This document shows positions 1 through 57,671 of a stretch of DNA of 64,000 nucleotides, piece by piece. The stretch spans positions 496,001-560,000 of the forward strand of contig QXJR01000009.1 of assembly GCA_020975725.1 (NCBI GenBank), in the 5' to 3' direction. Position 1 is the first letter of the stretch. Each line of letters starts with the position of its first letter. The notes beneath the pieces are model-generated. The model was not told where the DNA came from and ran no database searches. It saw nothing but the letters and a program-made list of their open reading frames with translations. The DNA comes from Picocystis sp. L7. Its lineage: Eukaryota > Chlorophyta > Picocystophyceae > Picocystales > Picocystaceae. The position numbers and the translations under genes are program-made.

Positions 1-1071
1 GCCGATCGTCCACCTCCGGCTGCGAATCGCTTCGGCCATCCGTAGCTCAGGTACGGCATATGGGTTCCTTCGCGCGTCCGAACCCTCTCCAGATCCTTCT
101 GCGACCTCGTGCACCTCTCGATGCTTCCCTTTTCCCATGCAAAGGCGCACGCCTTGCCTTCTCGTGCGCGCCAAAAGCCCACGAGGAAATGCCGAGATGG
201 GACCAAGCCCACCTGCCGGATCGGTCGATACCGTGTCACTACGGGTCGAGCCCCCTCCTCCGGTCCGAGGGAGTTTCTTCTCTCGGGGGAGGGGGGTTGG
301 AGACGCATGGAGGGTGGGAAGGGCCCAGGAAAGTAGGTGCAGGAGACAAAGGCGTCCATCCAAGCACAGCAGGAAATCCAGGGGAGCACAGACAAGGGAT
401 GCAACATTCATGCTGGTAGGGAATGGGAAGAACACGGGACGGGACGTCCGTGGAAGCAGGGGGACGTGGGTGCAGGGAGCAACAGGCGGGTGCACACGAG
501 GAACGAGAGCGACAGGAAGGGGTCGTGGACGTGACCCTCCGATGCTTTTGACACCGATCCCGCGGTCCAAGCACCTCATCTCCCACCACCGACGTCCCAC
601 CCGTTCGGTGGTCCTCGTCCCATGGCCACGTCCTGGCGCCATCGCTCCTCCCTCCGTCTGCACGTCGCATCTGGGCGCGCATCGACGTCCATCGGCACAC
701 CCCCAGGCAGCCATTCCAAACGCATGGGACGTCTGGGATGGATCCTGGGAGGATGGGTCCCCATCAACCCCACCTGCCAGGGAGGGATTGGGGCGGACAC
801 ACTGGGGTCGCACCACGACCCTGCCCGAAAGGAAAGCTCTGGAGTGACGCGTCCCGCCGCCAGAGGAGAGGAGACAGGTGCGCAGGCGTGCAGCTGCAGG
901 TGGACAAACGCGATGGATCCGTGCGGGAGGAGGGGAACACGGTCGGAAGACGAACTGCGGGATCGAAGGTGGGACAGGAGGGTCGAAACGAGGCGGTGCA
1001 CTCAAGGGAAGGAGAAGGATCTGGAAGGAATCCGAGCTGACGAACACCGCACTCGTCAATGCAGAAAAGCA
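1..1071. other. Gene-free left edge of window
   Basis: No reading frame here resembles a known protein, and the long open frames on both strands overlap each other with low-complexity composition. The only structured element seen is one copy of the 18-bp promoter-like motif at 269-286, oriented towards a gene that would lie to the left of the window. The right end should contain the promoter and 5' UTR of the ERp29-like gene. Confidence 0.5.
269..286 (-). promoter_or_regulatory. 18-bp motif A, copy 1
   Basis: Exact GGGAGTTTCTTCTCTCGG on the plus strand (CCGAGAGAAGAAACTCCC on the minus strand). The other five copies point CCGAGAGAAGAAACTCCC towards the gene they precede, so this copy should belong to a minus-strand gene beyond position 1. 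Its function is inferred only from recurrence and position. Confidence 0.5.
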
Positions 1072-1893
1072 ATGAAAACGAATGCGAAAGCCATCTCGGC
1101 CGTGCTGCTGGTGCTGCTTGTCGCCTTCTTCCAAGCCGGAAAAGCCTACGACGACTACTATGACGATTACGGCGGTGGCGCGAAGGCCCCGAAGAAGATC
1201 GCAGGAGTAGTGGACCTCGACGAAATCACCTTCGACAAGATCGTCGATGGAAGCCACAACGTGTTCGTGTCTTTCGTCGATGGAGACAGCACAGCCGCGG
1301 ATGACGAAGATGATGAAGGCGACGATGAAGATAGCACAGACAGCGACGACGACAGCAGCTCGGACTTTTCAACCGAACTTGAAACGTTGGCCGAGAAGTT
1401 CGGCAAGCACAACGGCGTCATCTTGGCGAGGGTCGATGCTTCGGATGCCTTCGATATCACCGAGAAGTTCGACGTGAACTCCTACCCGACTCTCATGCTC
1501 TTCCAGAAGGGTGAGAAGACGCCCGAAAGGTACGAAGGAGTGCTGAACGCGGACAAAATCGAGGCATTTTTGGGATCCAAGGTTGGGTTCCCGGCGGTCG
1601 TGGAAGAGCTCGAAGGTATTGTGAAAAAGTTCAAATCGGATGAATCCAGCAGAGACAAAACTCTCAAAGAAGCCAGGGAAGTAGTCGAGGGCCTGGACGA
1701 GGAGAAGAAGAAACTGGGCGAGTACTATCTCAAAGTAATGGAGAAGGTCATGAAGAAAGGGAACGATCACGTGAGTAAAGAGGCAAGGAGATTGAGTTCG
1801 ATCATCGAGAAAGGGTCCGCTCTGCAAGATAAAATCACTGAAATGAAGCAGAGGCTCGACATCCTGCGCTCTTTCCATAAGGATGAGCTGTAA
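1072..1893 (+). CDS. ERp29-like ER chaperone with acidic insert, KDEL
   Basis: A 273-aa secretory-pathway protein. Residues 1-25 form a signal peptide and the last four residues are KDEL, so it should stay in the ER lumen. Residues about 45-170 read as one thioredoxin fold (strand VFVSF at 64-68, cis-proline in SYPT at 137-140). Residues 172-265 match the all-helical ERp29 C-terminal domain (GEYYLKVMEKV, then RRLSSIIEK). ERp29 is a redox-inactive escort chaperone. Here the position of the PDI WCGHC motif holds an in-frame Asp/Glu/Ser stretch at 71-98, and the protein has no cysteine at all, so it cannot be an oxidoreductase. The ATG at 1072 is chosen because it opens directly on the signal peptide; the frame is open further upstream without protein-like content. 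The acidic run could bind calcium, which is inference. Confidence 0.85.
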   Translation: MKTNAKAISAVLLVLLVAFFQAGKAYDDYYDDYGGGAKAPKKIAGVVDLDEITFDKIVDGSHNVFVSFVDGDSTAADDEDDEGDDEDSTDSDDDSSSDFSTELETLAEKFGKHNGVILARVDASDAFDITEKFDVNSYPTLMLFQKGEKTPERYEGVLNADKIEAFLGSKVGFPAVVEELEGIVKKFKSDESSRDKTLKEAREVVEGLDEEKKKLGEYYLKVMEKVMKKGNDHVSKEARRLSSIIEKGSALQDKITEMKQRLDILRSFHKDEL

Positions 1894-2323
1894 TTCCATA
1901 AACACAGCATCAGCGCGATGAAATATCGAGATGGTGAAGCATTCCACACACTCAAACAAACATCTGTGTTCTGGGACGACCCCTCAATCATCTTACCGGC
2001 GATCTCTTGTTTTCCCGCTTTGGCGAGTTCCGATGGTCATGGTCGACCACGAACCCTTCTCTCCAAGAAAAGATCCTGTACCACAGCAGGGTCAGGTTTG
2101 CGACCCTGAATTCATGACCTGTTGGCCGGTTCCGACCCTCGACCACACCCCATCCACTCTCGAACGGTTATCGCCCCCATAACCGTCCATTCATCGGGGT
2201 TTACACCCGAATGGACGACATCCGTTCCAGATGCGTGGGTTGGTGCAGTCGGCCGCACCGCCGCCTGTTCATCGACAGAACGTTTCGAGGCGACGAAGGA
2301 TCGCCAAAGCGGCTTCGAACGCG
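1894..2323. other. Intergenic, ERp29-like to GMP synthase
   Basis: About 430 bp holding the 3' end of the ERp29-like gene and the promoter of GMP synthase. No further gene or strong repeat seen. Confidence 0.4.
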
Positions 2324-7290: not shown

Positions 7291-7294
7291 CTTC

Positions 7295-10965: not shown

Positions 10966-12385
10966 TCAGTCAAGCTTCCCTTTCTTATATAAGAGAGTAT
11001 CCTTCTGTACTGGCATGTTGTACATGCAGCAGCATCCACAACACGCAGCCACTAAGGCAATGATTCCTCCCACCCACATGACAGTCTGCGCCAGCCACTC
11101 GCTCGCAGTCAACTCTTCGTTATTCCCAAAAAGTGCTCCGCCATACCACATCGGTGCAAGTTGCCTTCCCCGATGTATTGCGCTGGCCCCCGCTTTCAGG
11201 TGCCCATTCACAAGGTTGCAGTGATCGCTCGATTCACTCAAAACTAAGATCTGGATGGCAACTTCTCCCCCAGAGATACCACTTGCTTTCTGAGCGACTG
11301 CAGCAGCAACTTCCCACTCAAACAGGCTCGTTGCAATCGATTGTTCAGTCTCACCTCCCCATTGCGAGCGCATCAGTGCCCCCATTGTCATGGATCCATG
11401 AAGCAAGGAAGGCTGCGTGCGTAGCATCACGGGGGGCTCGTCACGGACAGGCTGACTTGTAATGCGCACTGCGATTGCATGCCATAGACAAGCAATCTCG
11501 CTTGCCCACGCCCTCACTTGGATATCCTTCAAATCCAACTCGGTTTCTCGGCCATTCTTTGATAATTTCAGCACACCTTTGAAAGGTTGAATGGCTGCCA
11601 CATAAGTTGCTTTGGTATATTGCACCAGGTCTTGCAGGGCTCTTTCTTGGCACTTTCGATCACACTCATTTCGAGCAGGGCATGCCAAATATTCCTGGCC
11701 GATCTCTGGTTGCTTGTTTATGCCAAATCGCACCATTGCTCCAGCGACATTACCATCGTCTTCTGCCATGTTGTACGTCTCTACGTGCCATCCTTCCAAC
11801 TGTTCAGTGGCTTCCTGTGCCTCTCCTTCGTTCAGCATGTACAAGCTGATCAACGTTTTCGGTCGGATGAAAGGATTGGTGCTCACGATGTCGTCCACCT
11901 GCAGATTTCGAGCCATTTCGCAAGCGTGTCAACCACAGGCAATCGAACGGTTTCGTCGCGGAAACCATTTCGAAGAAAAACGCACCTTTTGAGCCGCAGC
12001 AGTGCTCAGAGCAAAGCCCGGATGCACGTCTAGTAGGGATGCTGCCGTTCCACAGATCACTTCCTCGTCGACGGCCACATCCTTCGTCTTGATCGTCGAG
12101 GACGGTGTCAGTCGGCGTTTCGCCTCGTGGATCTCTTCCTTTGCGCACGGATTTTCCTATCGCACTGCTCCACTCACTCGTTCTTCTCCGCTGGTTCGGA
12201 AGTACGTCCCACCTGGTCCGCTCAGGTACGCGACCTGTCCGAAGCGTCCGTTTTCGGTCAGTTTTTCCTCTTTCGTGCGTTTTCCTTTCGTCTTCGCCTT
12301 CGCCTTCCGTTTCCACGCCCACCTGTGCTCCTCTGGCACCGCACAAGGAACCCAACAAGGCGAAGATCGCTGCGTTGCGCGGCAT
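10966..12385 (-). CDS. Type I membrane protein with NPFxRP motif, three exons
   Basis: Model from three exons on the minus strand: 12323-12385, 11986-12156 and 10966-11898 (388 aa). Exon 1 is a signal peptide (MPRNAAIFALLGSLCGARGA). The 166-nt and 87-nt introns (12157-12322 starting GTGGGC; 11899-11985 starting GTGCGT with TTGAC) are both phase 0 and keep one frame. A lumenal domain follows with TAASLLDVHPGFALS and NPFIRPKTLISL, then a single membrane span near the C-terminus (VMWVGGIIALVAACCGCCC) and a short basic cytosolic tail. The NPFxRP block resembles the plant family of uncharacterised single-pass ER proteins now called DUF7794. That match is from memory and tentative. Function is unknown. 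Confidence 0.65.
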
Positions 12386-12429
12386 CTTCTTCGTGTCTTG
12401 GATGCCCATCCACCGACGTCTTGGTTCTC

Positions 12430-12565
12430 TCAATCCCTCTCAATGCCCTCTCTCTCGATCCCCTCTCTCTCAATGCCCTCTCTCTCTCAATGCCCTCTCT
12501 CAATGCCCTCTCTCTCGATCCCCTCTCTCTCTCAATGCCCTCCCTCCATCCATCCCTCTCTCGGG
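12430..12565. repeat. CTCTCAATGCC / CTCTCGATCCC minisatellite
   Basis: Imperfect tandem array of pyrimidine-rich units alternating CTCTCAATGCC and CTCTCGATCCC, separated by CTCT runs. It lies 45-180 bp upstream of the membrane-protein start codon, so it may be transcribed or act in the promoter. Confidence 0.7.
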
Positions 12566-12636: not shown

Positions 12637-12654
12637 GGGAGTTTCTTCTCTCGG
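12637..12654 (-). promoter_or_regulatory. 18-bp motif A, copy 2
   Basis: Exact GGGAGTTTCTTCTCTCGG, identical over 18 bases to copy 1. Reading on the minus strand it precedes the membrane-protein start by 252 bp. Confidence 0.55.
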
Positions 12655-13028: not shown

Positions 13029-13514
13029 TGTTTAATTGACTAATGAGTCCCTTCAATTAGTTCTGGTTCTCTCCACAGTCGTTGTGAAATCAGTTGTGAA
13101 CTGATCTGTGTCAATGAGACGTAACCCTAGTTGAGCGTTTCTTCTTTCGTTCAGGCGGTGTGGTGCCTTCAGCGACACGTCGCAGGACGGAGGTGAGAGT
13201 GGCTTGCCGTTGGAGGGCGTTGTGGAGAACTCAGTTGGAGAATGGAAAAATCTCTTTTACAGGTAATGCATGTGCGCTATTTATAGCGCTCCGAGTTTGT
13301 TCGAGCGAGGTGTTGTTCGTAGTTGCACGACGCCTACTGACTTGCTTGTTTTTCTGTCGAAGGCACCTGTCGAGCAGCTTTGCGTTCGTCCTGTCCAATG
13401 TCGGATTCCTCGGCATCTTCGTCGGGGGAAGTCCTTGTCTTGGACTTCGTCGAAGATTGGGTTTGGTCACTGAGTGTGGGGCTGTTCCCTTCTGAAAGGG
13501 TAGTTCTTTCAACA
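13029..13514 (-). repeat. LTR (3' LTR of the element)
   Basis: 486 bp, identical to the copy at 17437-17922. On the minus strand it begins TGTTGAAAG and ends in TTAAACA. It contains a TATAAATA box inside the small palindrome GCGCTATAAATAGCGC. The end of the gag-pol frame runs into this LTR. Confidence 0.95.
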
Positions 13515-16500
13515 CTCCCACTCAGCTCCACTTCAGGTGAGTACATGCCAAGCTTTGATATGCAGGTCTTGAATTTTTCTTTTGGGAGTCTTTTCGTGAG
13601 GTAGTCTGCCCACATTTTTTCCGTTGGGCAGTACCTGAAGTCAACTTCTTCACGTATCGCTCGTTCACGCAGAAAATGGTGTTGCACGTCAATATGTTTT
13701 GCACGGCTGACTGATTGTGGATTCTTCAACAAGCGCAGAGCTGATTGGTTGTCCACCTTAACAACTATCTCAACCTTCTCTGGGTTGAGTAGTTGGTCGA
13801 TGAAGTTCTTCATCCATAGGGCTTCTTTGACCGCAGCAGTGGCAGCTTGATATTCGGCTTCAGTTGTTGACAGGGAGATGGTTGGTTGAAGTTTACTTTG
13901 CCAGGCCACTAGTCCTCCCATTATCAGTATGGCGTATCCGGTTCTGGACCTGCGTGTGTCACTCTCTCCTGCATAGTCAGCATCACTGTATACGGTTATC
14001 TGAATGCAGTCAGGTAAGTTCTGTGAGGTGCCTTGGTACGTTAGTTGTAAGTTCCTGGTTCCGTTCAGATACTTTAGCGTGTTTCTCATTGCTTTCCAAT
14101 GTTCCTTTGTAGGATGATTGTTGAATCTGGCTAACACGGATGCTGCATAGCAGATGTCTGGTCTTGTTGTACCAGCGAGGTATTGGAGCTGTCCGCTAAT
14201 TTGCTGATACTGACTGTGCATCACTTTTTCTTCATCAGGTTTGGCAGTCAGTGGTACAGAGAGTGGTAAATCTTGAATCTTGCTGTCTTCAATCCCATGT
14301 TGTGTCACATAGTCCGTCACTTTTGCAGTCTGGTCCATGCTCAATGTTTGGTCAGGAATTTTTCTGGTGAGTGTGATTCCAAGAAATTGGTTTGCTTCTC
14401 CCACATCAGTTGCCTTGTACTTGGATTTGATTAGAGTTTTCATCTGTTGGATTGTATCAGATTTGTCACTGGCGATCAGTATATCGTCCACATAGAAACA
14501 CAGGAAACAGGTTGTATCTTGTGCAGAGCATTTCAGTACGCTCTGGTCAACCTGATTGCATGAGAAGTTCATACTTCTCAAGGTATTGGTTAGTTCGATG
14601 TTCCAGGCTCTGGGAGCTTGCTTGAGTCCGTAGAGGCTGCGATCGAGTTTCAGCACTTGGTCTGAGTTTTTGTCTGCTGACAGTCCTTTGGGTATTCGCA
14701 GGTACACTTCTTCCTCTAGGCTTGCATTGAGAAATGCAGTTTCGATGTCCATTTGATGTAGGTAAAGTTGGAGTTGGTTTACCGTTGCGAGGAAGATTCT
14801 GAGCGCTGTTTTGCTGACCACTGAGGCATATATGTCCTCATAGTCTTGTCCAGGTTTCTGATGACATCCAAGTGCGACCAGTCTGGCTTTGTATTTGACT
14901 ATGTTGTTGTTGGCATCCCTTTTTATCTTGAAGATCCACTTGCTTCCAATGGGTCTTTTGTCCTTTGGCAGATCAGTCTTGGTCCAGGTTCTCATGTGAT
15001 TGAGGGAGGTGAGTTCGGATTGGATAGCTTCCTCCCACATGGCTTTGTCAGCTCTTTTCATGGCCTGTTCATAGCCATCGAATTTGTCTGGTAAGTTTTC
15101 AGCTCTGTAGGCTTTATATTGCCTTTGTCTGTTTGGTCGGAGGTTGTATGGCTGACTCCCATGTTCATCTTCAGGTTGTGTTTCCGTTGGATCTGCCGTG
15201 TTTTCTTGTGTGGTATCAATCTCGGTTGTACCTGTGTCATTGGTATCGGTCACTGATAAGGTGTCAGTTGTGTTTTGATGCAATTCATCTTGTGCATCAA
15301 TGGTGGCAGCAGCCTCCCACTGAACAGGGACATTCAGGTAGTTTGTGGCAGTTCTCAGTTGTGTCACTTCATATGGTGTGGGAGAATATTCTCCCTTCTG
15401 GGTTTCATCAAATTTGACATTTCTGCTTATGATGAGTGAGTTGTTCACAAGCACGCGGTAGGTGCTTGTGTTCTCATAGCCCAGGAATATGCCCTTTTCA
15501 CTTCGGGCATCAAACTTTTTGGTGAGTTGTTTTGAGTTCTTGAGAACCCAGGCTGCGCATCCGAAAACTCGCAGGTGCTTTACTGACTGCTTCCTGTTGC
15601 TGAGTTTTTCATATGGGGATTTGTGATCCTTTGGGTCACTGGGTGGAATTAGGTTTCTGGTGTGGGTGTAGTTCTTGATAGCTTCACCCCAGTACTTCGA
15701 TGGCAAGTTTGAGCTGTTCAGCATGGTGCTGGCATGTTCCCTTAAATCTCGGTGATACCTCTCAGCATCATTTTGTTGTGGAGTGTATCCTGCAGTTAAT
15801 TCATGTTGAATTCCCTTTGCAGAAAGAAACTCCTTGAGGTCATTTCCCAGAAACTCTTGACCACGGTCCGTTCTCACTGATCTGACCCTTTTGTTTGAGC
15901 CAGCGAGTTTTTCCAGGTGGTTGATGGCTTCCCTGGCATATTGGGAAGCCTGTCCCTTGGAGGACATCAGGTAAGTGAGTCCAAATTTGGTTGAGTGATC
16001 CAGTACTGACAAGTAATGTGTGTACCCTGCGGGTGTTGGTGGGCTGATTTCACCAACCACATCCATGTACAGCAAATCCAGTGGTTCCAACTGGTAATTT
16101 TTTGGCTTGAAAGCAGTAGCTGTCTGCTTGTTCTGGATGCAGTCTTCACATTTTTTATCAGTTTTATGTGGGAGGTCAAGCTTTTTTATGCGACTTGGAT
16201 GCACATGTCCAAGTCTTTGATGCCAGGTTTTTGCTGTCACGCGTAGGCAGTAGTGGCTGCCTGTCATGGTGGTGATTTGCAAGGTATGGTTCCCCTTTTT
16301 GATTGTGCACCTGTTGTTTTGGAAACTTACTGACGCGTTCTGTTCTGTCATGCTTGATACTGACAATAGGTTTGCGGTGAGTCCAGGTACATACAATACA
16401 TTGGTAAGTGTGAGTTTGGTATGGATTTTGTCATCCAGTACTAACTCCACTGTTCCTCTGCCTTCAGCTTTCAGGTGTGTTCCATCTGCAATTTCGATGG

Positions 16501-17401
16501 TTGCATGATGCTGATCGAGTGACATGTCCTTGAACATTTCCTTGTGGCCTGCCATGTGCCACGATGCCCCAGAATCAATGATCCAGGTGTGCTGGTCATT
16601 GGTGGTAAGTTCTGCGGTCACTGCCATAAGGCTAATGACATTATCCTCGACCTCTGTTGACTTGTTTTTGTTGGAAGGTTTTCTCTTTGGTCCAGAGATG
16701 GTGATCCCATGGTCTGCTTTGAATTTCCTGCAGTCAGCGAGCACATGGCCTTTGTTGTGGCAGTACTGACACCGTACTTTTTCTTTCTTCGCAGGTTTGT
16801 TTACAGAGTCAGTCTTGGCTATGAAGCTGGTACCATGGTAGAGTCTGGCTTCTTCATGGGTCAGTGATTTTCTCACTTGGGCAATGGTCAGTTTCTCATG
16901 GTAGTGCTCCAGTACAGTCACTAGATTGTTGTACTCTGCAGGCAGTCCATTTATGGCTATGGTGGCAACTTCCTGCTCAGGGAGGTTTATCCCAATTTGC
17001 CGAAGTTCCTCGATGATCAGTACCAGGTAGTTGATGTATTGGTCTGCTGTTTGATCAGATTGCTTCTTGAGCTGACTGAGTTTGCTCCTGAGATCCTTTT
17101 CGCGCAGAAATCCCTTTTCATTGTACAGGTTCTGCAGTACTTTCCAGATTTCACACGGAGTCTTGCATTGGTTCACATGCGACATGTACTCCATTGTAAG
17201 GCTATTTTTTATCCTTATCTTAGCTTTGTTAAGTTTTCTCTGAAACTCTTTGTCATCTTCCACATCTGATTTTTCAGGTTCTTCTTGTGTCATTTCCCAC
17301 AGGTCATGGAGAATCAAATGATTCTCCATTCGGATGAACCATTCCTTCCAGTTTGTTCCATCCAGTTTAGGTACTGCACATACCTCAGCTGGATCATTCA
17401 T
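13334..17401 (-). CDS. Copia-type gag-pol polyprotein
   Basis: A single open frame of 1,355 codons from the first ATG inside the element. Domains in order: a gag region (DGTNWKEWFIRMENHL near the start), a CCHC knuckle (CQYCHNKGHVLADC), an aspartic protease (IDSGASWHM), an integrase core with GAG-pre-integrase (WHQRLGHVH), a reverse transcriptase (YVDDILIAS) and RNase H near the C-terminus. Copia elements commonly express gag and pol from one frame, as here. It is mobile-element coding capacity, not a host gene. Confidence 0.92.
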   Translation of the reverse strand: MNDPAEVCAVPKLDGTNWKEWFIRMENHLILHDLWEMTQEEPEKSDVEDDKEFQRKLNKAKIRIKNSLTMEYMSHVNQCKTPCEIWKVLQNLYNEKGFLREKDLRSKLSQLKKQSDQTADQYINYLVLIIEELRQIGINLPEQEVATIAINGLPAEYNNLVTVLEHYHEKLTIAQVRKSLTHEEARLYHGTSFIAKTDSVNKPAKKEKVRCQYCHNKGHVLADCRKFKADHGITISGPKRKPSNKNKSTEVEDNVISLMAVTAELTTNDQHTWIIDSGASWHMAGHKEMFKDMSLDQHHATIEIADGTHLKAEGRGTVELVLDDKIHTKLTLTNVLYVPGLTANLLSVSSMTEQNASVSFQNNRCTIKKGNHTLQITTMTGSHYCLRVTAKTWHQRLGHVHPSRIKKLDLPHKTDKKCEDCIQNKQTATAFKPKNYQLEPLDLLYMDVVGEISPPTPAGYTHYLSVLDHSTKFGLTYLMSSKGQASQYAREAINHLEKLAGSNKRVRSVRTDRGQEFLGNDLKEFLSAKGIQHELTAGYTPQQNDAERYHRDLREHASTMLNSSNLPSKYWGEAIKNYTHTRNLIPPSDPKDHKSPYEKLSNRKQSVKHLRVFGCAAWVLKNSKQLTKKFDARSEKGIFLGYENTSTYRVLVNNSLIISRNVKFDETQKGEYSPTPYEVTQLRTATNYLNVPVQWEAAATIDAQDELHQNTTDTLSVTDTNDTGTTEIDTTQENTADPTETQPEDEHGSQPYNLRPNRQRQYKAYRAENLPDKFDGYEQAMKRADKAMWEEAIQSELTSLNHMRTWTKTDLPKDKRPIGSKWIFKIKRDANNNIVKYKARLVALGCHQKPGQDYEDIYASVVSKTALRIFLATVNQLQLYLHQMDIETAFLNASLEEEVYLRIPKGLSADKNSDQVLKLDRSLYGLKQAPRAWNIELTNTLRSMNFSCNQVDQSVLKCSAQDTTCFLCFYVDDILIASDKSDTIQQMKTLIKSKYKATDVGEANQFLGITLTRKIPDQTLSMDQTAKVTDYVTQHGIEDSKIQDLPLSVPLTAKPDEEKVMHSQYQQISGQLQYLAGTTRPDICYAASVLARFNNHPTKEHWKAMRNTLKYLNGTRNLQLTYQGTSQNLPDCIQITVYSDADYAGESDTRRSRTGYAILIMGGLVAWQSKLQPTISLSTTEAEYQAATAAVKEALWMKNFIDQLLNPEKVEIVVKVDNQSALRLLKNPQSVSRAKHIDVQHHFLRERAIREEVDFRYCPTEKMWADYLTKRLPKEKFKTCISKLGMYSPEVELSGSVERTTLSEGNSPTLSDQTQSSTKSKTRTSPDEDAEESDIGQDERKAARQVPSTEKQASQ

Positions 17402-17436
17402 TGAGATGTTTTCCAAGCAATGCAAGGCTCTTAACC

Positions 17437-29238: not shown

Positions 29239-30601
29239 CCCAAACCCACGTCCCAGTGCGCCACTTCCTGCCTCAAAGTGGGAACACACCCCACCGATCG
29301 GTGCATGGACACATGTCCTTGTTCACATCGAGGTGTGTGCAGTCGTGCATGCAGGTGTGCACGGGGATGTGCATGGGTGGAGGTGGAAGGGTCTCGCAAC
29401 GATGCAACGAAGGAAGGATCCACAATAGACACGACGGACGGGACACCACCGACGAGACGCGCACGAGGATGGAAGGGGAACGGAGGTCAAGGGAAACGCT
29501 AGGCGATGTGGGTGGATGGAGCTCAACATGCGAGCGAAGAACATGGGGACGGACTCGATCCGGAAGGTCGGGAACTGTGCAACCAACACGAAAGGACGAA
29601 AGGATTGGATTCCCCTTTTCATGCGATGGATGGAAAAACCCAAATCGGAGTCCATAGGAAGAGGACAATACGTGCCGAGCACCAAGAATAGGTCGACGTG
29701 GTACGAAAGAAGGCACATGGATCCACCTGCAAGCTAAGAAAACGGTTTCTCCCCTCTTGCAGAGCGAGAACACATGGAGCAAACGGGGTGGTCGCCATTG
29801 TCGCGAAAACCCTCAGAGTTTGGAGACATTTCTTCGAAAGGAAGCTTTGGCGTGCTGTGTAACCCGTGAAGATGGAGTTGCCTGCCGGAAGGGAATCCGA
29901 TTGGTGATGTCCGGCCCCGTGCTTCATCCTTTGGCCAAGAGACGAAGGCGGATATGGTCAAACGAAACTCAGTGGGATGAATGCGTGTTCAATAGAAAGA
30001 GAACGCCTTCGAAGAAGAAGACCAATGAACCCATGTGCTTCGTGCCTTGCAATCCACCCTCCATGCTTCCTGTGTGTGTTGGGATGACGATGCTCTCTTC
30101 AAATCACGAGGATGTATTCTTGCAACGAGAGGATGGTTGACCGATGCAGGCGGTCCGCACGTGGACCCAGGATCGAAGTCGACAGCTCCGTCGCATTGCG
30201 TATCGAGAGCGATCCTTCACCACCACCGCGAAGCGAATTGGTTTGGAAACCAAACACCCCCACCACAAGTTTCACGACTCGAGAGAAGAAACTCCCTTCG
30301 ATTTCATCGTCCCTGTCTCCTCCCCCACCTCCTTCCTTCGTTGAACCGAAGCATGCTGGGTTCGATTGGAGATCGGTAGTCGGTTCCATCCGTAAACGCC
30401 CCCGGTCGGGACTTCCAATGAGATCCTTTCCAGCCGTGTCTGGAGGATCCAAGCGAAACGGTTCGCTGCGAGACCGCACGGCGCAAGCGTGCGACGCACA
30501 TTTCGATGCGAATAGTGCGTGGACGGTTGAATCGAGGAGTTCAAGGGGGGAGAAAGGGATCCACGAGGCACGAAACGGATCCACAGGTGGGTCGAAACGC
30601 A
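29239..30601. other. Intergenic between SNF5 and TMEM14-like gene
   Basis: About 1.36 kb with no recognisable gene. The largest plus frame (about 29757-30140) has no family resemblance. A motif A copy lies at 30280-30296. Confidence 0.4.
30280..30296 (+). promoter_or_regulatory. Motif A, copy 3
   Basis: CGAGAGAAGAAACTCCC on the plus strand (17 of 18 bases), 306 bp upstream of the TMEM14-like ATG and pointing towards it. Confidence 0.55.
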
Positions 30602-31099
30602 ATGCGGAGGCCTTACACGGCCAAGAATCGAGGGAAGAGGGACAGGGAAAAAACAACTGGTGAAGTGGCTGCCTCAGCCGCCAATGCAGACGGACAGGCC
30701 TTGAGCGGAAAAGAGGAAAGCGTGAAATCTAGGCACGCAATGTTGCACGACTTTTGTATGGGGCTGCCGTACGGCACGATCTTCCTGGTCGGAGGAGTCG
30801 CAGCCGTCCCTTTCGTAGGAGCGAAGGGGCTTGCCTTCTCCCTGTGTGGTGCGCTGGTACTGCTTCTGTCCATCATGAGCCTTAAATCGTGGAGGAAGAG
30901 GAAGACTTCCACGGCATACACAATTGGAGGATCGTGCGCTGCTGCAGTTGCGCTGTGGCAGAGCAAGTCGTTCGTACAAGCGCCATACACCATGTACACG
31001 ACTATTCCTGCCCTTGCGACGGTACTGAGCGGAATGATGGCCCTTTTCTTGCTGTACAATGTGCTCGCTGGAGGTAACCCACCCAAAAGTGAACAGTGA
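30602..31099 (+). CDS. TMEM14/FAX-like membrane protein
   Basis: Small membrane protein of the TMEM14 (Tmemb_14/FAX) family, 165 aa, with about four hydrophobic helices from residue 55 on. HDFCMGLPYGTIFLVGG matches the N-terminus of the short plant FAX5-7 proteins (MHDFCFTIPYG), and the last helix LATVLSGMMALFLLYNVLAGG fits too. Plant FAX proteins are linked to fatty-acid export across plastid or ER membranes; animal TMEM14C to haem-precursor transport. The 46 residues before MLHDFC are hydrophilic and not family-like, so the real start may be the ATG at 30740, giving about 119 aa. AATAAA occurs near 31299. Confidence 0.8.
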   Translation: MRRPYTAKNRGKRDREKTTGEVAASAANADGQALSGKEESVKSRHAMLHDFCMGLPYGTIFLVGGVAAVPFVGAKGLAFSLCGALVLLLSIMSLKSWRKRKTSTAYTIGGSCAAAVALWQSKSFVQAPYTMYTTIPALATVLSGMMALFLLYNVLAGGNPPKSEQ

Positions 31100-41300: not shown

Positions 41301-42213
41301 CAACCCGTGTGGTCTACTTCAAGCGTGAGCATGTCAACCAGCTCCAAGTCGTCATGAGTAGGAGAGGAAACCATAGCTATCTCTCATCTGCATGGGTCTC
41401 TTTGCAGCACAGTCGTCTTGATGAATCATGGCAAGTCAGCATTTTCCCGTCCTGCAGCACGCTCAGGTACAAGCCTTTTACTGCCAACTCTGAAGCTCGC
41501 ACCCGCGATACAGGTCGCACACACGTCACCGGACATCAAGAGCAGGAAAGGGTAGGTTCCCCAATCACTCTGCACTCTGACATCTGTTTTGCTTTGTTTC
41601 TGTCGCACCATGTTGCAGTCAAGCGCTCGGACACGTCTCCTGGATTTGCACCGCAAGATCAAGATCCTTGTTATGGGCCCCACTTTCAATGCCAGGCACC
41701 CAGCCTTCCACGAGCCCCTTGAGTTTTCAGGTCTTTTCGAAAGCCCGTTGCCCGTGCATCCCACCGTGGCGGATGTCTACACTACAACTGGTGTTTTACA
41801 ACACCCGGCCTGGCTTACCCAAAGCCGATTGGCCAACTTTTTTTCTTCGACCGGACATTTTTTCAACTCACCAACTTCCTTTCACCTCCACCATCTCTCC
41901 GATGGATGCGTGGCGAGGACGAGTGTGCGCTCACGCCATGTATATGTGGTTTCGGACAGTGTCATGGCAAAGCCTCTTTGTGTGCAAGGATGTAATTGTT
42001 GATCCTGACTCCCACCTTCAACTGGAACACTGTTCGGCTTTGTTCGTCATTCCCAAGCTCTGGGTCCCGAGCGCCGTTTCACTCACATCTTCCTTCGCAC
42101 GCGATGCCGCGCGCTGCTAAGTCTCGCGTGCGCAGTTGAGGCCGCTGCTCCGCGTCCTGCTGCAGAGTAAACAGTCGAGGTGTGCCGGGACGTGGAAGCC
42201 GGTGCTCGCCTCG

Positions 42214-49684: not shown

Positions 49685-49855
49685 GAAAGGACAGACATCG
49701 ACAGACAGAGAGATTGAGGGAGGTGGAGAGGAGGGAGATTGAGAGAGGTGGAGAGAGGTGGAGGGAGATGGAGAGAGATGGAGAGAGATTGACAGAGGTG
49801 GAGGCAGGTGGAGGGAGATTGAGAGAGGTGGAGAGAGGTGGAGGGGAGTGTCGGA
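49685..49855. repeat. GAGAGAGGTGGA purine-rich microsatellite
   Basis: Imperfect tandem purine tract built from GAGAGAGGTGGA and GAGAGATGGA units on the plus strand, ending just before the PP2C-3 ATG. It would form the 5' UTR or promoter of that gene. Confidence 0.7.
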
Positions 49856-51831: not shown

Positions 51832-52788
51832 TCAGTGAGGCACTTGGTTCCAAATCCACCCCAAGGCAAGCAGCACGGCTGTGTCCAAACCGATGCGCCT
51901 TGCAATGGCTGCTACATTCGGCTTCCTCTCTTCGCTGGTGCCCACGAGATCCTTGAATCGTAGCCTGCCTTGGCTTTCTCCGAGTGCAGTCAAGACGCCT
52001 TCCATATGTCCTTTTCCAATGACACCCACCACTGTGTCAACCTCTCGCACGGCCTTGGACCTTTTCAATGACCAGGCGATGTAGATGTCTCTTTCGTGGA
52101 CGATGGCCGGCATGAGTTGCGGCAGTACCCCGCCGACTTCCTCTGCGGCGACGCTCCACAAGTCCTCTTGCATGAGCTTTTCGATTTTTTCCTGCGTGAG
52201 GTCCATTTGGTCCACTTGTTTCAAGCTCGATCCCATCAGCCACAGAAGCTTCGCTTTGCTTCTCCATCCCAGCCCATCCCACGCTCGCTTGAGCGTGATT
52301 TCGATCGGTCGGTCGCCGAGCACGATCTGCGCTCCCACTTCCTCTGCTGCCACTCTTGCCGCTTCGAACTCCCCTCCCACTTGTGCTTGTGCTAGCAAGG
52401 ACATGCGTGCGTAGATTCGGCTCAAGAGATACCGCAGCACCAGTGCAGGTGTTCCTCCCAAAGACACGCTCCTGGTCACTGCATCTCGGAACCTCGCGCC
52501 TCCGAGGCCAAACCTGGTTTGTGCCTCTCCACGAGGTTCTTGGGAGGCGTAGAGCGCACCCGATCGGCTCCTGCAGAGCTCCACCACCACGCACTGCGGT
52601 TTGACGGTCCTTATGACGCGTTGCACGTCTTGGACGGATCGCTGGGCGAGGTGCGCAGTGCCGACGAGCAGGATCTCCTTGGGCTTGTGCACGCCCGCTT
52701 CGAGCTTCGGCACCACCGCACGCACCGTCCCGTCCTCGAACAGATCCCTCAGCTGCGGATGGGCCTTGTAGGCCGCGCTTGCTCGCAT
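51832..52788 (-). CDS. TraB-family protein
   Basis: A 318-aa member of the TraB/PrgY family. Hallmarks: ILLVGTAHLAQRSVQDVQRVI (the GTAH motif), PQCVVVELCRSR, GGEFEAARVAAEEVGAQIVLGDRPIEITLKRAW, ERDIYIAW, and VVGVIGKGHMEGV. The C-terminus has a moderately hydrophobic segment (AVLLALGWIW) that may anchor it. Bacterial TraB was named for pheromone shutdown. Eukaryotic members sit on organelle outer membranes, and plant TRB1 tethers mitochondria to ER. The fold is metalloprotease-like. The longer frame up to 53028 runs over motif A, so the ATG at 52788 is chosen. Confidence 0.88.
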   Translation of the reverse strand: MRASAAYKAHPQLRDLFEDGTVRAVVPKLEAGVHKPKEILLVGTAHLAQRSVQDVQRVIRTVKPQCVVVELCRSRSGALYASQEPRGEAQTRFGLGGARFRDAVTRSVSLGGTPALVLRYLLSRIYARMSLLAQAQVGGEFEAARVAAEEVGAQIVLGDRPIEITLKRAWDGLGWRSKAKLLWLMGSSLKQVDQMDLTQEKIEKLMQEDLWSVAAEEVGGVLPQLMPAIVHERDIYIAWSLKRSKAVREVDTVVGVIGKGHMEGVLTALGESQGRLRFKDLVGTSEERKPNVAAIARRIGLDTAVLLALGWIWNQVPH

Positions 52789-52910
52789 CTCGCGGCGCAC
52801 CACGCACGCGTAAGGCGCGCCTCTGCACCCTCCTTGGCGTCCCAACGAGCTGGGATCGTTCTCCACCACACAATGTGCCACGTGGATCCCCACCCCGCCT
52901 CCACGGCCGA

Positions 52911-52928
52911 GGGAGTTTTTTCTCTCGG
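52911..52928 (-). promoter_or_regulatory. Motif A, copy 4
   Basis: GGGAGTTTTTTCTCTCGG on the plus strand (17 of 18), reading towards TraB, 123 bp from its start codon. Confidence 0.55.
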
Positions 52929-53265
52929 GGGTTGGGACCTCGGATGGTCCTTTTCGGATCGACGTGGATCCGAAACCATCGGAACGTGGAGCCGACTCAC
53001 GGCGTCTGCTGGGCACGTCGACGTCCACGGATCCGCGGTTTCGGCGCAGGAGGTGTGGATCCGCCGCACGAGCTCATCCACGGGACCCGTGGGGACGGGG
53101 TTCGATCCACCATCCCAGCATCCGGACGCATCGCACACGCGCGATCTCGCGTTCGCGTCAGGAACGCCACCACGCGCCTCGATCGTCCGCGTCTTCGCCA
53201 TCCTTCCATCCCAACCGTCCGTCCTTCCTTCGATGGCGACATGCCGACGCTCCATCCCTCCCCTT

Positions 53266-53282
53266 CGAGAGAAGAAACTCCC
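53266..53282 (+). promoter_or_regulatory. Motif A, copy 5
   Basis: CGAGAGAAGAAACTCCC on the plus strand, 264 bp upstream of the helical-repeat gene and pointing to it. Confidence 0.55.
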
Positions 53283-53545: not shown

Positions 53546-55216
53546 ATGACGCCCAGATCCACGAACACGATGCGACGCGTGTACGTGCCTCGCGCTTCGC
53601 AGCGTCGCAACAGACACGTGTCGACGCTCCTGGGACTTTTGGAGAAGTTCCTGGAGCGACAGGAGTGGTGTGCGGCCGCGTCCGTCGCGTCCTTGCTGTT
53701 GCGCGCGACGACGAACCGAGGCGAAGCCGGTGCCAAGGCGATACAAGCGGCCTTGGAATGCGCATGGCGCGGTCGGAAGGAACTCAAACAAGCGATCCTG
53801 CGTCTCATGAGGGAAAGAAGACAGTGGAAGGCCGTGGAACAAGCCTACGTGGAAGAAGCCGCCACCAGGATCGTCCAAGGGGAACACAACCGAGCGGTGT
53901 CGCTGCTGGACGAGTCCTTCGACTTTCGGAGCGCGTACAGCAGACAGAGAGTGCAAGCGAGCGAAGAAAGCCTTGTTTTCGAATACGTCTGCCATGCCGT
54001 GCAGGGAATCGCCAGCTACCTTGAATGGCTGCTCGCAGTGAAACGGGAGAGCGCAGAAGGACCATGGAAAACCCAACGAAGAACGGAAAGCCTGGGAAAG
54101 AGCTGTCATCGGATCCTGAAGCTACAAGGGACTACCGAAAGCGCTCAAGGCATAGAAGAGAAGGAAACGGCCCTTGGATTCCTGAACAAGGCGTTGGACC
54201 AAAACCCAGAGGCCAACTTGTTGGCCCTGCTGTATGCGCAGCTCTGCGCCTGCTCCAACGACTGGGAGAGAGGGCTCAAGGAAATAAAAACACTGATGGG
54301 ACGTGGAAACGTAACGCCCCATCTAAAGTGCATCGGCATAGTGGTGCTTGAAGCCAGCATCTACGAAAGTACTAGAACTGCAACGAACAGCACGAGCACC
54401 ACCGCGTCTTCGAGCTCGGACACAACCAACGAGTTCCACCAGCAAGAACCCCGCCGAGAGGAGGAGGAAGGAACTAGAGGGAACCGAGCCGATGCACAAT
54501 CAAGGACGAGCGAATTGATTCCAGAAGAGTGGGCAGAGGCCCCCCGTAGCCAATTGGAAACACTACAGGAATGGTACACCTGTGCTGCAAAGGCTTCCCC
54601 AGGATGCCATACTACCTGCCGCCGCCTGCTTCTTCTCCTGCGTTTTCTCAAGGGAGAGACCATCAGATCGTGCATGGATGAAATCGATGCATTGGCAAAT
54701 CACCTAGACGTCTGCACTCACTGCCCATGGGGTTGGGAAAGAATGAGCCAATTGTTATTTGAACATGCCACCTTGCCCTCTTGCCCAGGTTGGTCGCAAC
54801 TCTGTGGCAGCACATGGAACGCCAGGCTTCTTGTGTGGAGGGACTTTCACTTTTCTTCACTTTCGATTTTGAAAAAGGATGATGTTGTGGCCAGGCACCA
54901 AGCTGGCTTTCTTCGTTGCCACGGCGCGAAGGTAGTCTGTGCATCATTCTTCTATGGGCTTGAATTTGTCGACTACAAGCATGCGAGGGATCGTATGCGC
55001 AAATGGGACTCGGCATCGGTAAAACAGGTCAACGAAGACATAGCACGAGCTAGGACAATGCGTTCAGAATACTTGGAACACCTCTTTCTAGAAGACAAGC
55101 CATATTTTGTTACACATCCACATGAGTTGCCCTCGTCATTCTGGAGAGTCTTTCCGCAGCATCGCCGCCAGATGAGAGATGGGGGGGTGCCCCATGCTGT
55201 TGAAGCTCATGATTAA
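53546..55216 (+). CDS. Helical-repeat protein, unknown (TAF1A-like?)
   Basis: A 556-aa soluble protein that I cannot assign firmly. The N-terminal half is helical with TPR-like spacing (LLGLLEKFLERQEWCAAASV, then LLLRATT; ALGFLNKALDQNPEANLLALLYAQL). The middle (about 275-335) is a Ser/Thr/Glu-rich linker, and the C-terminal part is helical again with several Cys/Trp. The opening helix pair and general shape recall TAF1A, an RNA polymerase I factor, but no diagnostic motif is visible. The neighbouring ribosome-biogenesis gene ESF1 is weak support. Its TAA stop is immediately followed by the minus-strand AATAAA of ESF1. Confidence 0.55.
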   Translation: MTPRSTNTMRRVYVPRASQRRNRHVSTLLGLLEKFLERQEWCAAASVASLLLRATTNRGEAGAKAIQAALECAWRGRKELKQAILRLMRERRQWKAVEQAYVEEAATRIVQGEHNRAVSLLDESFDFRSAYSRQRVQASEESLVFEYVCHAVQGIASYLEWLLAVKRESAEGPWKTQRRTESLGKSCHRILKLQGTTESAQGIEEKETALGFLNKALDQNPEANLLALLYAQLCACSNDWERGLKEIKTLMGRGNVTPHLKCIGIVVLEASIYESTRTATNSTSTTASSSSDTTNEFHQQEPRREEEEGTRGNRADAQSRTSELIPEEWAEAPRSQLETLQEWYTCAAKASPGCHTTCRRLLLLLRFLKGETIRSCMDEIDALANHLDVCTHCPWGWERMSQLLFEHATLPSCPGWSQLCGSTWNARLLVWRDFHFSSLSILKKDDVVARHQAGFLRCHGAKVVCASFFYGLEFVDYKHARDRMRKWDSASVKQVNEDIARARTMRSEYLEHLFLEDKPYFVTHPHELPSSFWRVFPQHRRQMRDGGVPHAVEAHD

Positions 55217-55272: not shown

Positions 55273-57387
55273 TCATGCCTTATGTGATGTTTGCAATTGC
55301 TTCCTCAGTTTTTGCCTCTTATCCTTCGTTTTCAATGACATGACCATGGCTTTGACATCAGAGCCGATATTGTCGGATTTCGAAGGAACTGTTTGGCTCT
55401 CATGGGGCTCTACCTGCACCTTCCTGCGTTTCAGTCTTTCTTCAGTGATTTGTTTCACGGCAACAGATTCCTTCTTATACCGTGGATCTGTTGGATCTAG
55501 TGCATAGTGATGCGAGGCGTACAATGCCGCAAACCTGGGGTCGTCCACATCGATCTTCAGGCTGGCTTTCTTGTTTAGATCAACATTGTCCTCTTCTTCA
55601 CTTTCTCCAACATTCCTTCTATTCTTCTTCTTCTTGCTCGTCTTTGGAGCTCTCCGTGACATCTGATGCTGTGCTGCGATTTCAGTTGGCTTGCTGTTCC
55701 CTTGAGCGATGTCGTGCAAGTGGTTGTCATCAAGCATCAGCAACTCAAGCTCGTGCTGTCTCCTTGCTTCTGCCAACTCCTCCTTCTTTCTTCCCCGTCG
55801 CCCTGAATTCTCAACAACAGGTCGCCTTTTCTCATCCATGAAAAATTCATCTTCAGAGAGTTGCTTTGCATCATCGTGGGCGGGGTTGTCTACATACATA
55901 TCATCGCTGTTATCCTCGTCTGAACTGTCGCCCCTTTTCCCACCCTTCCTACTCTTTGCTTTTTCCTTTTTGCGCCGCATGTAGGTCTGCCACACACTCT
56001 CGCCTTCCTTTTTCTTTTCATCACGCTTCTCTTCCAAAATTCTTTTGCTGAGGTTTTCCAACCCAGAGTCAAAGGTGATTTCCATGTTTCCATCTTCCTC
56101 TGATGCCCCTTCTCCCATTGCCCATTCTTTATCTGCACGCTCTCTTTCCCCCTTCATCAACAAATCTCTCAGTGCTGCAGCTTTTGCGGAGAGATCCTCG
56201 GTGGCATCTTCTTCACTTTCTTCCTCAGTGGATGCAATGTATGCCTTGAGGTCTTCATCCTTGATAGCATCTTCAGACAGTTTCTTCTTGAGAAGTTGTT
56301 TGCGCGGCTCATCGTCTGCGTCCCAAGTCAGCTGAGGCTTAGAATGTTGCAGGGACTTTGTCTCAAAAACAGGGGCTTCGTACCCTACAGGTAGCTCGCA
56401 TGCACGTTCCTTGATTTCCCGGCCTGAAAAGTCCTGCTCCGATGGCACGTATCTCAAGTCAAACTTGGTGGCAGTCTTTTCAAACTCCATCCCGTCACAT
56501 TCGTTGTAAACCACTGCAGCAGTCTTTCTACTGTCAAATTCTGCAATGGCATAGTAGTACCTCAGCTTTGATCTTTCGTAGGCTCTCAACTTTACATCTT
56601 CCACATCTTCCCCAGACGAGCTGTCATCCTCGTGTACGCGCTTGCTCTCGTCCTGGTCTCGAAAGATGCTAGGGCCTTTCAATTCCTCCTCCTTCATCCT
56701 TTCCAACCCATAGTCTGATGGGTATATGGTCACGCTACGAAGAATGCCTCTTTTTGGCACAAAGGAATGGAGTGCTGCAAACAGGTCCACTGCCTTGACA
56801 CGGTCCCAGTCCATGTCCACAATGGCCAGTCTATTGGTTTCTTCCTCGATGTCTGGAATATTCTCTTCATGTTTCGTCACACCGTACAAGGATCCAGCAA
56901 ACGCTCCCACACCCCACACTTCTTCTCCTCCGCTGTCGGTGGACTCGCTCACTGCATCTGAGAACTCCGCTTCGGACCCTGATGTATCCTCATCTTCCTC
57001 TTCTTCCTCATTGTTGCCATCTAGCCCTCGCAGGCGTAGGTAGCGCTGTTTTTCTTCAAGAGTCGAAAAACGGATTCCCATGTATTCCAACTGTTCCTCC
57101 TCGTCCTCCGTGGCATCCTCTTTCCCTTCCTCTGGTGCTTTGGTCTTTCCATCCTCCTGTTCTTCCAGACGGTAGTACTTTCCTCCTTCTGCCTTTCTAT
57201 TTCCCTTGGCATTTTCACGCACCGGTGCACCTCTTTTGTCCACCTTGGCTCTTTCTGTCCGGAACAGTCCTTTCCCTTCAATCGCATCTCGAAAGCGAGC
57301 ATCCACGGCCACTTTCCGCTGCTCCTTTGGGAGGCGGCGGAACCTCGGGTCGGTGCGTGCGTGAACGAATCGGTCGTCTTCTTCCAT
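55273..57387 (-). CDS. ESF1: ESF1 pre-rRNA processing factor
   Basis: A 704-aa nucleolar protein needed for 18S rRNA maturation in yeast. The start RFVHARTDPRFRRLPK is the ESF1 opening (DPRF, then VDARF). An acidic stretch follows at about 95-165. The conserved core has TNRLAIVDMDWDRVKAVDLFAAL, SVTIYPSDYGLERM, LRYYYAIAEFDS and YNECDGMEFEKTATKFDLRYVP. The C-terminus has a NUC153 motif (DDPRFAALYASHHYALDPTDPRY) and a basic tail. Acidic and basic low-complexity segments alternate, as in family members. The start MEEDDRF (57387) is the first ATG. Motif A lies 270 bp upstream. Confidence 0.95.
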   Translation of the reverse strand: MEEDDRFVHARTDPRFRRLPKEQRKVAVDARFRDAIEGKGLFRTERAKVDKRGAPVRENAKGNRKAEGGKYYRLEEQEDGKTKAPEEGKEDATEDEEEQLEYMGIRFSTLEEKQRYLRLRGLDGNNEEEEEDEDTSGSEAEFSDAVSESTDSGGEEVWGVGAFAGSLYGVTKHEENIPDIEEETNRLAIVDMDWDRVKAVDLFAALHSFVPKRGILRSVTIYPSDYGLERMKEEELKGPSIFRDQDESKRVHEDDSSSGEDVEDVKLRAYERSKLRYYYAIAEFDSRKTAAVVYNECDGMEFEKTATKFDLRYVPSEQDFSGREIKERACELPVGYEAPVFETKSLQHSKPQLTWDADDEPRKQLLKKKLSEDAIKDEDLKAYIASTEEESEEDATEDLSAKAAALRDLLMKGERERADKEWAMGEGASEEDGNMEITFDSGLENLSKRILEEKRDEKKKEGESVWQTYMRRKKEKAKSRKGGKRGDSSDEDNSDDMYVDNPAHDDAKQLSEDEFFMDEKRRPVVENSGRRGRKKEELAEARRQHELELLMLDDNHLHDIAQGNSKPTEIAAQHQMSRRAPKTSKKKKNRRNVGESEEEDNVDLNKKASLKIDVDDPRFAALYASHHYALDPTDPRYKKESVAVKQITEERLKRRKVQVEPHESQTVPSKSDNIGSDVKAMVMSLKTKDKRQKLRKQLQTSHKA

Positions 57388-57656
57388 CACGCGTCGAATT
57401 CGATGCAAGAGACGCGTTCAGCAATGATTCCTGCCACTCTTTGGTCGAGCAAGACTCGCAAAAGACGGTCCAAGCGCGACAGAGGGGAGCGCGACACCGC
57501 TGCAAGTCGACGCGATGGAACGAAATGGCCATGGCCTGGGCCCCATCGACTTAACTCAAAGGTAAACACGTGTTCGGAGAGGACCCGCTGAGGGGAAACG
57601 AGGTTACTTTCGGGGATTAATACCGTCCAGAACGACCCAGGGGGTGGCAGGCACCA

Positions 57657-57671
57657 GGGAGTTTCTTCTCT
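57657..57671 (-). promoter_or_regulatory. Motif A, copy 6 (15 of 18)
   Basis: GGGAGTTTCTTCTCT on the plus strand, then GCAGG instead of CGG. It reads towards ESF1, 270 bp from its start codon. Confidence 0.45.

What the first reader, a model, noticed from the sequence alone, without database searches (positions are those of the whole stretch)
269..57671. Directional 18-bp intergenic element GGGAGTTTCTTCTCTCGG in six places
Copies at 269, 12637, 30280, 52911, 53266 and 57657 match at 18, 18, 17, 17, 17 and 15 of 18 bases. Chance expectation for even one exact repeat of an 18-mer in 64 kb is negligible. All lie in intergenic sequence. In all five cases where the adjacent gene is visible, CCGAGAGAAGAAACTCCC reads towards its start codon at 123-306 bp (membrane protein, TMEM14-like, TraB, helical-repeat protein, ESF1). 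In the TraB/helical-repeat promoter two copies point outwards, each to its own gene. A core-promoter or regulon element is the simplest reading; a short mobile or transcribed repeat is the alternative.
Basis: partly seen in the sequence, partly recalled or inferred. Interest (0 to 1): 0.8.

Follow-up and report, generated by a model that had tools for sequence, protein, structure and literature searches.

The report
Long, near-invariant algal promoter element
A nearly unchanging 15-18 base DNA word sits just upstream of several genes in what looks like a green alga, probably where transcription begins, and is best read as an undescribed promoter signal bound by an unknown protein.

Summary
Six copies of GGGAGTTTCTTCTCTCGG (0,0,1,1,1,3 mismatches) lie in the window against 0.09 expected, and none score between them and background. 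All six lie outside my gene models, though a coding-potential segment runs through copy 4. The window looks like nuclear DNA of the green lineage. In 5 of 5 testable copies the gene-sense reading AGAGAARAAACTCCC points to the nearer start codon, 122-269 bp away. All four complete intergenic regions are head-to-head, so some start is always pointed at: orientation alone P=0.03, with distance P=0.003. New here: the motif lies at the C>G strand-skew peak (motif masked; mean offset 29-39 bp against 134-147 expected for 60-100 bp windows, P 0.0001-0.0006; P=0.04 at 150 bp). That peak marks transcription starts in land plants (PMC555766, abstract). Hairpin, coding and mobile-repeat readings were tested and not supported. 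Best reading: a start-site-proximal, oriented promoter element on a subset of genes. A ribosome-biogenesis regulon is possible but weak (P about 0.05). No whole genome or transcripts were available, so the genome-wide test remains open.

The parts
269..286 (-). copy 1 (CCGAGAGAAGAAACTCCC on the minus strand), pointing to a gene beyond the window's left end
   Evidence: perfect 9-bp hairpin with 4-nt flank on the other strand; target gene not visible
12637..12654 (-). copy 2, 227 bp before the modelled start (12409) of the DUF7794 gene; head-to-head with an Rsa3-like gene (likely start 18088) after discounting a Copia insertion
30279..30296 (+). copy 3, 209 bp before a small membrane-protein-like ORF (start 30506); head-to-head with SNF5-domain gene (minus strand, start 29238)
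52911..52928 (-). copy 4, 122 bp before TraB-family gene (start 52788); the TraB frame is open through it
53265..53282 (+). copy 5, 263 bp before TAF1_subA-like gene (start 53546); same head-to-head region as copy 4, pointing the other way
57657..57674 (-). copy 6 (3 mismatches, all at the outer end), 269 bp before ESF1 gene (start 57387)
51832..52788 (-). TraB/PrgY/gumN-family gene (target of copy 4)
   Evidence: Pfam PF01963 E=1.3e-17
53546..55216 (+). gene with a partial RNA polymerase I TAF subunit A match (target of copy 5)
   Evidence: Pfam PF14929 E=4.5e-8, 33.3 bits against cut-off 31.8, residues 378-478; single-sequence model unusable
55273..57387 (-). ESF1, nucleolar pre-rRNA processing factor by family name (target of copy 6)
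   Evidence: PF25121 E=4.6e-54, PF08159 E=3e-9
30506..31099 (+). small membrane-protein-like ORF (target of copy 3); TMEM14/FAX identity not confirmed
   Evidence: no Pfam hit above cut-off and no PDB sequence hit up to E=1; single-sequence model poor, pLDDT 55.7
10966..12409 (-). DUF7794 gene in at least two exons or frames (target of copy 2)
   Evidence: PF25070 E=8e-9, 35.7 bits against cut-off 32 on 10966-11916; upstream exon inferred from ORF 11804-12409 and coding-potential segment 12040-12339, itself without a Pfam match

Best explanation
The element (gene-sense consensus YCGAGAGAARAAACTCCC, core AGAGAARAAACTCCC) is a transcription-start-proximal promoter element of a green alga's nuclear genome. 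A sequence-specific DNA-binding protein or core-promoter complex recognises the whole 15-bp core in a fixed orientation at or up to a few tens of bases downstream of the start site. It helps set the site and direction of initiation for the nearer gene; where two divergent genes both use it, each has its own copy. Shown: six near-identical copies outside gene models, orientation to the nearer start, coincidence with the C>G skew peak, no long shared repeat, no covarying RNA stem, no coding in four of five testable copies. Inferred: the position of the start site, the existence of the binding protein, and an effect on transcription.
For: Copies far above chance and sharply separated from background. 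Pairwise similarity of the flanked copies is limited to 15-39 bp around the core. Oriented to and within 310 bp of the nearer start in 5 of 5, simulation P=0.003. With the motif masked, the 100-bp C>G skew peak on the gene-sense strand is centred -60 to +10 bp from the motif centre in 6 of 6; P=0.0005, 0.0001, 0.0006 and 0.04 for 60-, 80-, 100- and 150-bp windows. The C-to-G step is largest at the motif among common offsets; 0 of 20000 random offset sets reach it for GC skew, and P is 0.001 or less for C+T. C>G skew marks transcription starts in Arabidopsis and rice (PMC555766, abstract read). In the TraB / TAF1_subA region each gene has its own outward copy.
Against: No transcript or start-site data, no binding data and no second genome. 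Orientation alone is P=0.03 on five copies, and the 310-bp cut-off was chosen after seeing the data; distance alone gives P=0.10. Copy 3 has the C-to-G step in the wrong direction at 60 bp, and copy 4's skew peak is low (0.17). With a 150-bp window copy 1's peak lies 177 bp away. A coding-potential segment and an open TraB frame run through copy 4. Distance to the start codon varies (122-269 bp). The other 20 gene starts that I listed have no copy, so it is not general. The 18-mer's own hairpin on the non-gene strand is as stable in only 1.4% of composition shuffles, which an RNA reading would predict. The skew-start link is published for land plants and not tested in this organism. Gene starts are my models.
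Confidence: 0.67

Rival explanations
1. Regulon element: a binding site that co-regulates a subset of genes, most plausibly ribosome biogenesis / Pol I, rather than a core-promoter element.
For: Two of five targeted genes are nucleolar or Pol I by family name (ESF1; TAF1_subA), and the partner in the copy-2 region is Rsa3-like. Exact test about 0.053 with 3 such genes among about 33 (hand count). Only 5 of the 25 gene starts that I listed carry it.
Against: The other three targets (DUF7794, TraB, small membrane protein) have no evident nucleolar role. Copy 2 points away from the Rsa3-like gene, whose Pfam score (22.3) is under the cut-off (27). The test is post hoc.
Confidence: 0.25
2. RNA-level element in 5' leaders (for example a protein-binding or translational control site, or a hairpin).
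For: The motif may lie in the leader if transcription starts just upstream. The GGGAG-TTTCTT-CTCTC strand forms a short hairpin more stable than 98.6% of composition shuffles of the 18-mer, extended to 9 bp in copies 1 and 4. With flanks shuffled separately, copy 1 still folds well on the gene-sense strand (P 0.02-0.03).
Against: The more stable hairpin is on the strand opposite to the target mRNA. Only copies 1 and 4 form the full 9-bp stem. No covariation: 225 of 500 shuffles reach the observed score. Summed over the six copies, folding does not beat controls that keep flank composition (P 0.09-0.27). No Rfam match at gathering thresholds.
Confidence: 0.13
3. Short mobile element or terminal inverted repeat; copies 4 and 5 would be the two ends of a 372-bp element.
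For: Copies 4 and 5 are an inverted pair 354 bp apart. The Copia LTRs hold a 13-mer with 2 mismatches to the core.
Against: The four other copies have no partner scoring above background. No target-site duplication by inspection. Local matches between copies end within about 20 bp of the core. The only transposon recognised among the 50 of 89 ORFs that I scanned, the Copia element at 13029-17922, holds no copy within 3 mismatches of the 18-mer.
Confidence: 0.04
4. Chromatin or replication element (origin or barrier) that happens to sit between divergent genes.
For: All four complete host regions are head-to-head; 4 of 9 head-to-head against 0 of 11 tandem regions (hand counts), P=0.026.
Against: By length this is not significant: head-to-head regions are about 58% of assignable non-coding DNA in my models, 5 of 5 gives about 0.065 (own arithmetic). 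It does not predict orientation to the nearer gene or the skew peak.
Confidence: 0.08

Closest known systems
Long, sharply defined start-site motifs of animal housekeeping promoters (ZNF143/SBS ACTACAATTCCC, Drosophila Ohler motif 1, TCTCGCGAGA); recalled, not from a call
   Same: long, low-degeneracy, start-site-proximal, common in divergent promoters
   Different: different sequence; green-lineage host; binding factor unknown; no start-site data here
Plant Y patch (recalled) and GC-skew start-site signature (PMC555766, abstract read)
   Same: the element sits at the C>G skew peak on the gene-sense strand
   Different: Y patch is a loose pyrimidine run; this is a 15-bp near-invariant word with a purine-rich half
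Yeast general regulatory factor sites (Rap1, Reb1, Abf1; PMC6602560, passages read)
   Same: strong sites in promoters of a gene subset, including ribosome-related genes for Rap1
   Different: passages say Rap1's repression of divergent transcription does not depend on motif orientation, and speak of sites several hundred bp upstream of coding starts (start of that sentence not shown); here the copies are oriented and inferred to lie at the start
Oomycete Inr-FPR core promoter (recalled)
   Same: long supra-initiator element in a protist genome
   Different: unrelated sequence and lineage

Membership tests
Start-site-proximal core-promoter / transcription-factor element | non-coding, upstream of genes, not in coding or 3' regions | tested here: met
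   6 of 6 copies outside my gene models; non-coding stretches of 40 or more bases total 16615 of 64000. Reservation: a coding-potential segment runs through copy 4
Start-site-proximal core-promoter / transcription-factor element | orientation bias to the served gene | tested here: met
   5 of 5 to the nearer start, P=0.03; weak because all four complete host regions are head-to-head
Start-site-proximal core-promoter / transcription-factor element | fixed position relative to the transcription start | tested here: inconclusive
   only a proxy: skew peak -60 to +10 bp from motif centre with 100-bp windows, one copy at -177 with 150-bp windows; no transcript data
Start-site-proximal core-promoter / transcription-factor element | effect on transcription and a bound factor | not testable with these tools
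   needs reporter, DAP-seq or pull-down
Dispersed mobile repeat (MITE, SINE, TIR) | homology well beyond the core, TIRs or target-site duplications | tested here: not met
   local matches of 15-39 bp only; no partner copies for the four others; no duplication by inspection
Structured RNA element | covarying stem across copies | tested here: not met
   no Rfam match. The core is invariant, so its own short stem cannot be tested by covariation
Conserved coding peptide | open frame through the motif into the gene | tested here: not met
   in-frame stops before the start codon in 4 of 5 copies; open only at TraB
Ribosome-biogenesis regulon site | enrichment at ribosome-biogenesis genes | tested here: inconclusive
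   2 of 5 targets; exact test about 0.053, post hoc

The most novel reading that the evidence does not exclude
A lineage-specific, unusually long (about 15 bp) and almost invariant directional initiator-type element, read by a dedicated DNA-binding factor, that specifies the start and direction of transcription for a large gene subset (possibly thousands of sites if the window's density of six per 64 kb holds) in a green alga, with divergent genes each carrying their own copy.
Probability: 0.35. Interest if true: 0.65.

Novelty: new member of a known kind. Interest (0 to 1): 0.5.

Why it matters
Core-promoter elements outside animals, yeasts and land plants are, to my knowledge, poorly catalogued. 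A long motif with no intermediate versions in non-coding DNA, placed at the inferred start site and oriented to the nearer gene, would give a handle on how green algae choose start sites and direction in head-to-head gene pairs, and would name a target for finding its binding protein. It would also help annotate this alga's genes.

Tried and rejected
RNA hairpin: folded with and without flanks and pairs counted. For it: the 18-mer's own hairpin beats 98.6% of composition shuffles; with flanks pooled and shuffled, copies 1 and 4 (4-nt flanks) and copies 1 and 2 (16-nt flanks, -31.6 and -24.8 kcal/mol) fold unusually well. Against it: with each flank shuffled separately the sum over six copies is not unusual (P 0.09-0.27; copy 1 alone 0.02-0.08), so much of this comes from C-rich and G-rich flanks facing each other, and there is no covariation.

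Mobile repeat: flank BLAST and partner search. Weak copies: a 13-base search gave six further sites with 2 mismatches, two in LTRs and four in coding models. Coding or upstream ORF: frames read; all five offsets to the start codon are 2 mod 3 (chance 1/81, post hoc), but stops intervene in four; left unexplained. Prokaryotic or viral origin: 0 exact 17-mers in the viral collection; 53 stretches in the 84,980-genome prokaryote collection (with the R variant) against about 60 expected by chance (own arithmetic). Relatives in viral contigs: ESF1 and aminotransferase searches found none; the EF-Ts search found 5 loci with 38-59% identity in the best segment, not used further.

Literature, listings only unless said: element 12-mers, 31 papers, 30 listed, none about such an element by title and abstract start; 10-mers with alga/promoter, 7 of 7 listed, none; algal promoter motifs, picoalgal genomes and ribosome-biogenesis elements (3, 0, 2, 12 of 13, and 0 papers listed), none fitting. 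PMC12633428 (Auxenochlorella, preprint): 12 of 28 matching places seen, no such motif there. Single-sequence structure models of two target proteins were too poor to use (pLDDT 55.7 and 41.9), so no fold search was run. A basic protein at 59192 had no Pfam hit up to E=1 or PDB hit up to E=10 and was not counted as ribosome-related.

Small mismatches in my own scripts: one search used 29245, 18082 and 59195 as gene boundaries where the same call placed the starts at 29238, 18088 and 59192; region lengths shift by 3-7 bp. Copy 1, without a visible start, was searched over a different range.

Full report
WHAT WAS CLAIMED AND WHAT IS THERE. A search with up to three mismatches finds exactly those six: 269 (+), 12637 (+), 30279 (-), 52911 (+), 53265 (-), 57657 (+), with 0,0,1,1,1,3 mismatches. 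A hundred dinucleotide shuffles of the window give a mean of 0.09 matches and never more than one. A weight matrix built from the six scores them 30.4-34.5; the next window site scores 12.5 and the best in ten Markov-shuffled windows 16.1. A looser search with a 13-base part and two mismatches finds twelve sites against 1.92 expected: the six, two in the LTRs of a Copia element, and four inside coding models. So intermediate copies do not appear in the remaining non-coding DNA, which is unusual for a typical short transcription-factor motif (my judgement). In a search for 12-mers shared, with one mismatch, among 30 non-coding stretches, 18 of the 20 12-mers reaching five stretches belong to this element and two to CCATCCATCCC; two of four shuffles also gave two such 12-mers. 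Fourteen of the 18 columns are invariant, and five of six changes lie in the last three bases of the CGG end, so the conserved core is about 15 bp: gene-sense AGAGAARAAACTCCC.

WHAT GENOME IT IS IN. The window has matches to RuBisCO activase, an S1/EF-Ts polyprotein with two EF-Ts domains, a KN homeobox protein, DUF7794, ESF1, eIF3 subunit, SNF5 and a Copia retrotransposon, among the 50 of 89 ORFs that I scanned. The activase matches chloroplast activases in the PDB. I infer nuclear DNA of the green lineage, probably a compact, intron-poor green alga. No whole genome is held. Exact 17-mers are absent from the viral contig collection, and 53 stretches match in the prokaryote collection, about what chance gives (about 60, own arithmetic), so nothing links the element to viruses or prokaryotes.

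GENE CONTEXT. Four motif-bearing regions have both neighbours in view: DUF7794 | Rsa3-like (with a recent Copia insertion between, identical 486-bp LTRs and a 5-bp duplication), SNF5 | small membrane-protein-like ORF, TraB | TAF1_subA-like (two copies, pointing outward), ESF1 | unidentified basic protein. All four are head-to-head. Copy 1 points off the left end of the window. Because head-to-head regions have a start on each side, 'reads towards a start codon' is automatic. The informative facts are that in 5 of 5 testable copies the element points to the nearer start (P=0.03), and that orientation plus distance within 310 bp has P=0.003 in a simulation within the actual regions; distance alone has P=0.10. 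The cut-off was chosen after seeing the data, and gene starts are my models from ORFs, coding potential and Pfam. A coding-potential segment (51841-53034) and the open TraB frame run through copy 4, so that copy could be argued to lie in an extended reading frame, although no in-frame ATG was seen upstream of it in the stretch printed. By hand count the element is in 4 of 9 head-to-head and 0 of 11 tandem upstream regions (P=0.026), but head-to-head regions also hold about 58% of the assignable non-coding DNA (own arithmetic), so this is not significant by length.

AN INDEPENDENT SIGN OF TRANSCRIPTION STARTS. Land-plant genes show a C>G strand skew peaking near the transcription start (PMC555766; abstract read). 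With the motif masked, I located the skew peak on the gene-sense strand of each region. For 100-bp windows its centre lies -39, -60, +10, -44, -34 and -25 bp from the motif centre in copies 1 to 6, that is 6 of 6 within 60 bp. Mean distance is 38.5, 29.3 and 35.3 bp for 60-, 80- and 100-bp windows against 147, 140 and 134 expected, P=0.0005, 0.0001 and 0.0006; with a 150-bp window it is 68 against 126, P=0.04, copy 1 then lying 177 bp away. The C-to-G change across the motif is larger than at random offsets (0 of 20000 sets for GC skew; P=0.00095 and 0.0007 for C+T). Against this, copy 3 has the step reversed at 60 bp and copy 4's peak is low (0.17). In 20 other genes the peak lies at a median of 253 bp before the modelled start codon, the same zone as the motif copies. 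I read this as the motif lying at, or up to a few tens of bases downstream of, the start of transcription. This is inference: there are no transcripts.

WHAT IT IS PROBABLY NOT. Hairpin: the strand opposite to the target mRNA can form CCGAGGGAG-UUUC-UUCUCUCGG in copies 1 and 4, and the 18-mer's own short hairpin is as stable in only 1.4% of composition shuffles. But the other copies do not keep the outer pairs, pair counting shows no covariation beyond shuffles (225 of 500), and the summed folding energy does not beat shuffles that keep each flank's composition (P 0.09-0.27; copy 1 alone 0.02-0.08). Rfam: no match at gathering thresholds. Coding: the motif reads (E/Q)R(R/K)NS in the frame of the downstream gene in all five testable cases, a 1/81 coincidence noticed after the fact, but stops intervene in four of five. 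Mobile repeat: local matches between the flanked copies are 15-39 bp long, the longest between copies 1 and 4, and the four copies outside the TraB region have no partner.

HOW IT MOST LIKELY WORKS. A DNA-binding protein or a specialised initiation complex recognises the full 15-bp core in one orientation and places initiation for the nearer gene; in the TraB | TAF1_subA pair each gene has its own copy. Whether it is a general element of one promoter class or a regulon site is open. Two of five targets are nucleolar or Pol I genes by family name (ESF1, TAF1_subA), exact test about 0.053, post hoc and with an approximate gene count of 33.

NOVELTY. No described element with this sequence was found in the searches made, within an open-access library that lacks most subscription papers; sequence logos in figures would be missed. 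The closest kinds are long housekeeping start-site motifs of animals (recalled) and general regulatory factor sites of yeast (PMC6602560, passages). I rate it a new member of a known kind, of moderate interest, with a clear genome-wide test outstanding.

Noticed in passing
13029-17922: Recent Copia LTR retrotransposon (486-bp identical LTRs, GAGGT duplication, single 1355-aa gag-pol ORF on the minus strand) inserted in the DUF7794 | Rsa3-like divergent region, about 165 bp before the likely Rsa3-like start.
   Followed up: partly
26847-27422 and 27576-28151: 576-bp perfect duplication inside the S1/EF-Ts polyprotein gene, which has two EF-Ts domains; looks like recent gene conversion or duplication.
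   Followed up: no
62409-63953: Apparently nuclear gene resembling ATP synthase alpha (chloroplast, bacterial and mitochondrial chains) over about 270 residues, with a further C-terminal ATP-synthase domain match near its end; possible divergent paralogue.
   Followed up: no
38030-42195: 4.1 kb between divergent genes with no coding-potential segment in my scan and no BLAST match to the rest of the window; perhaps non-coding RNA or decayed element.
   Followed up: partly
motif copies 2-6: Offset from motif to the downstream start codon is 2 mod 3 in all five cases (245, 227, 140, 281, 287), unexplained.
   Followed up: partly
12437-12562 and 49716-49845: CT/GA-rich minisatellites close to gene starts.
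   Followed up: no
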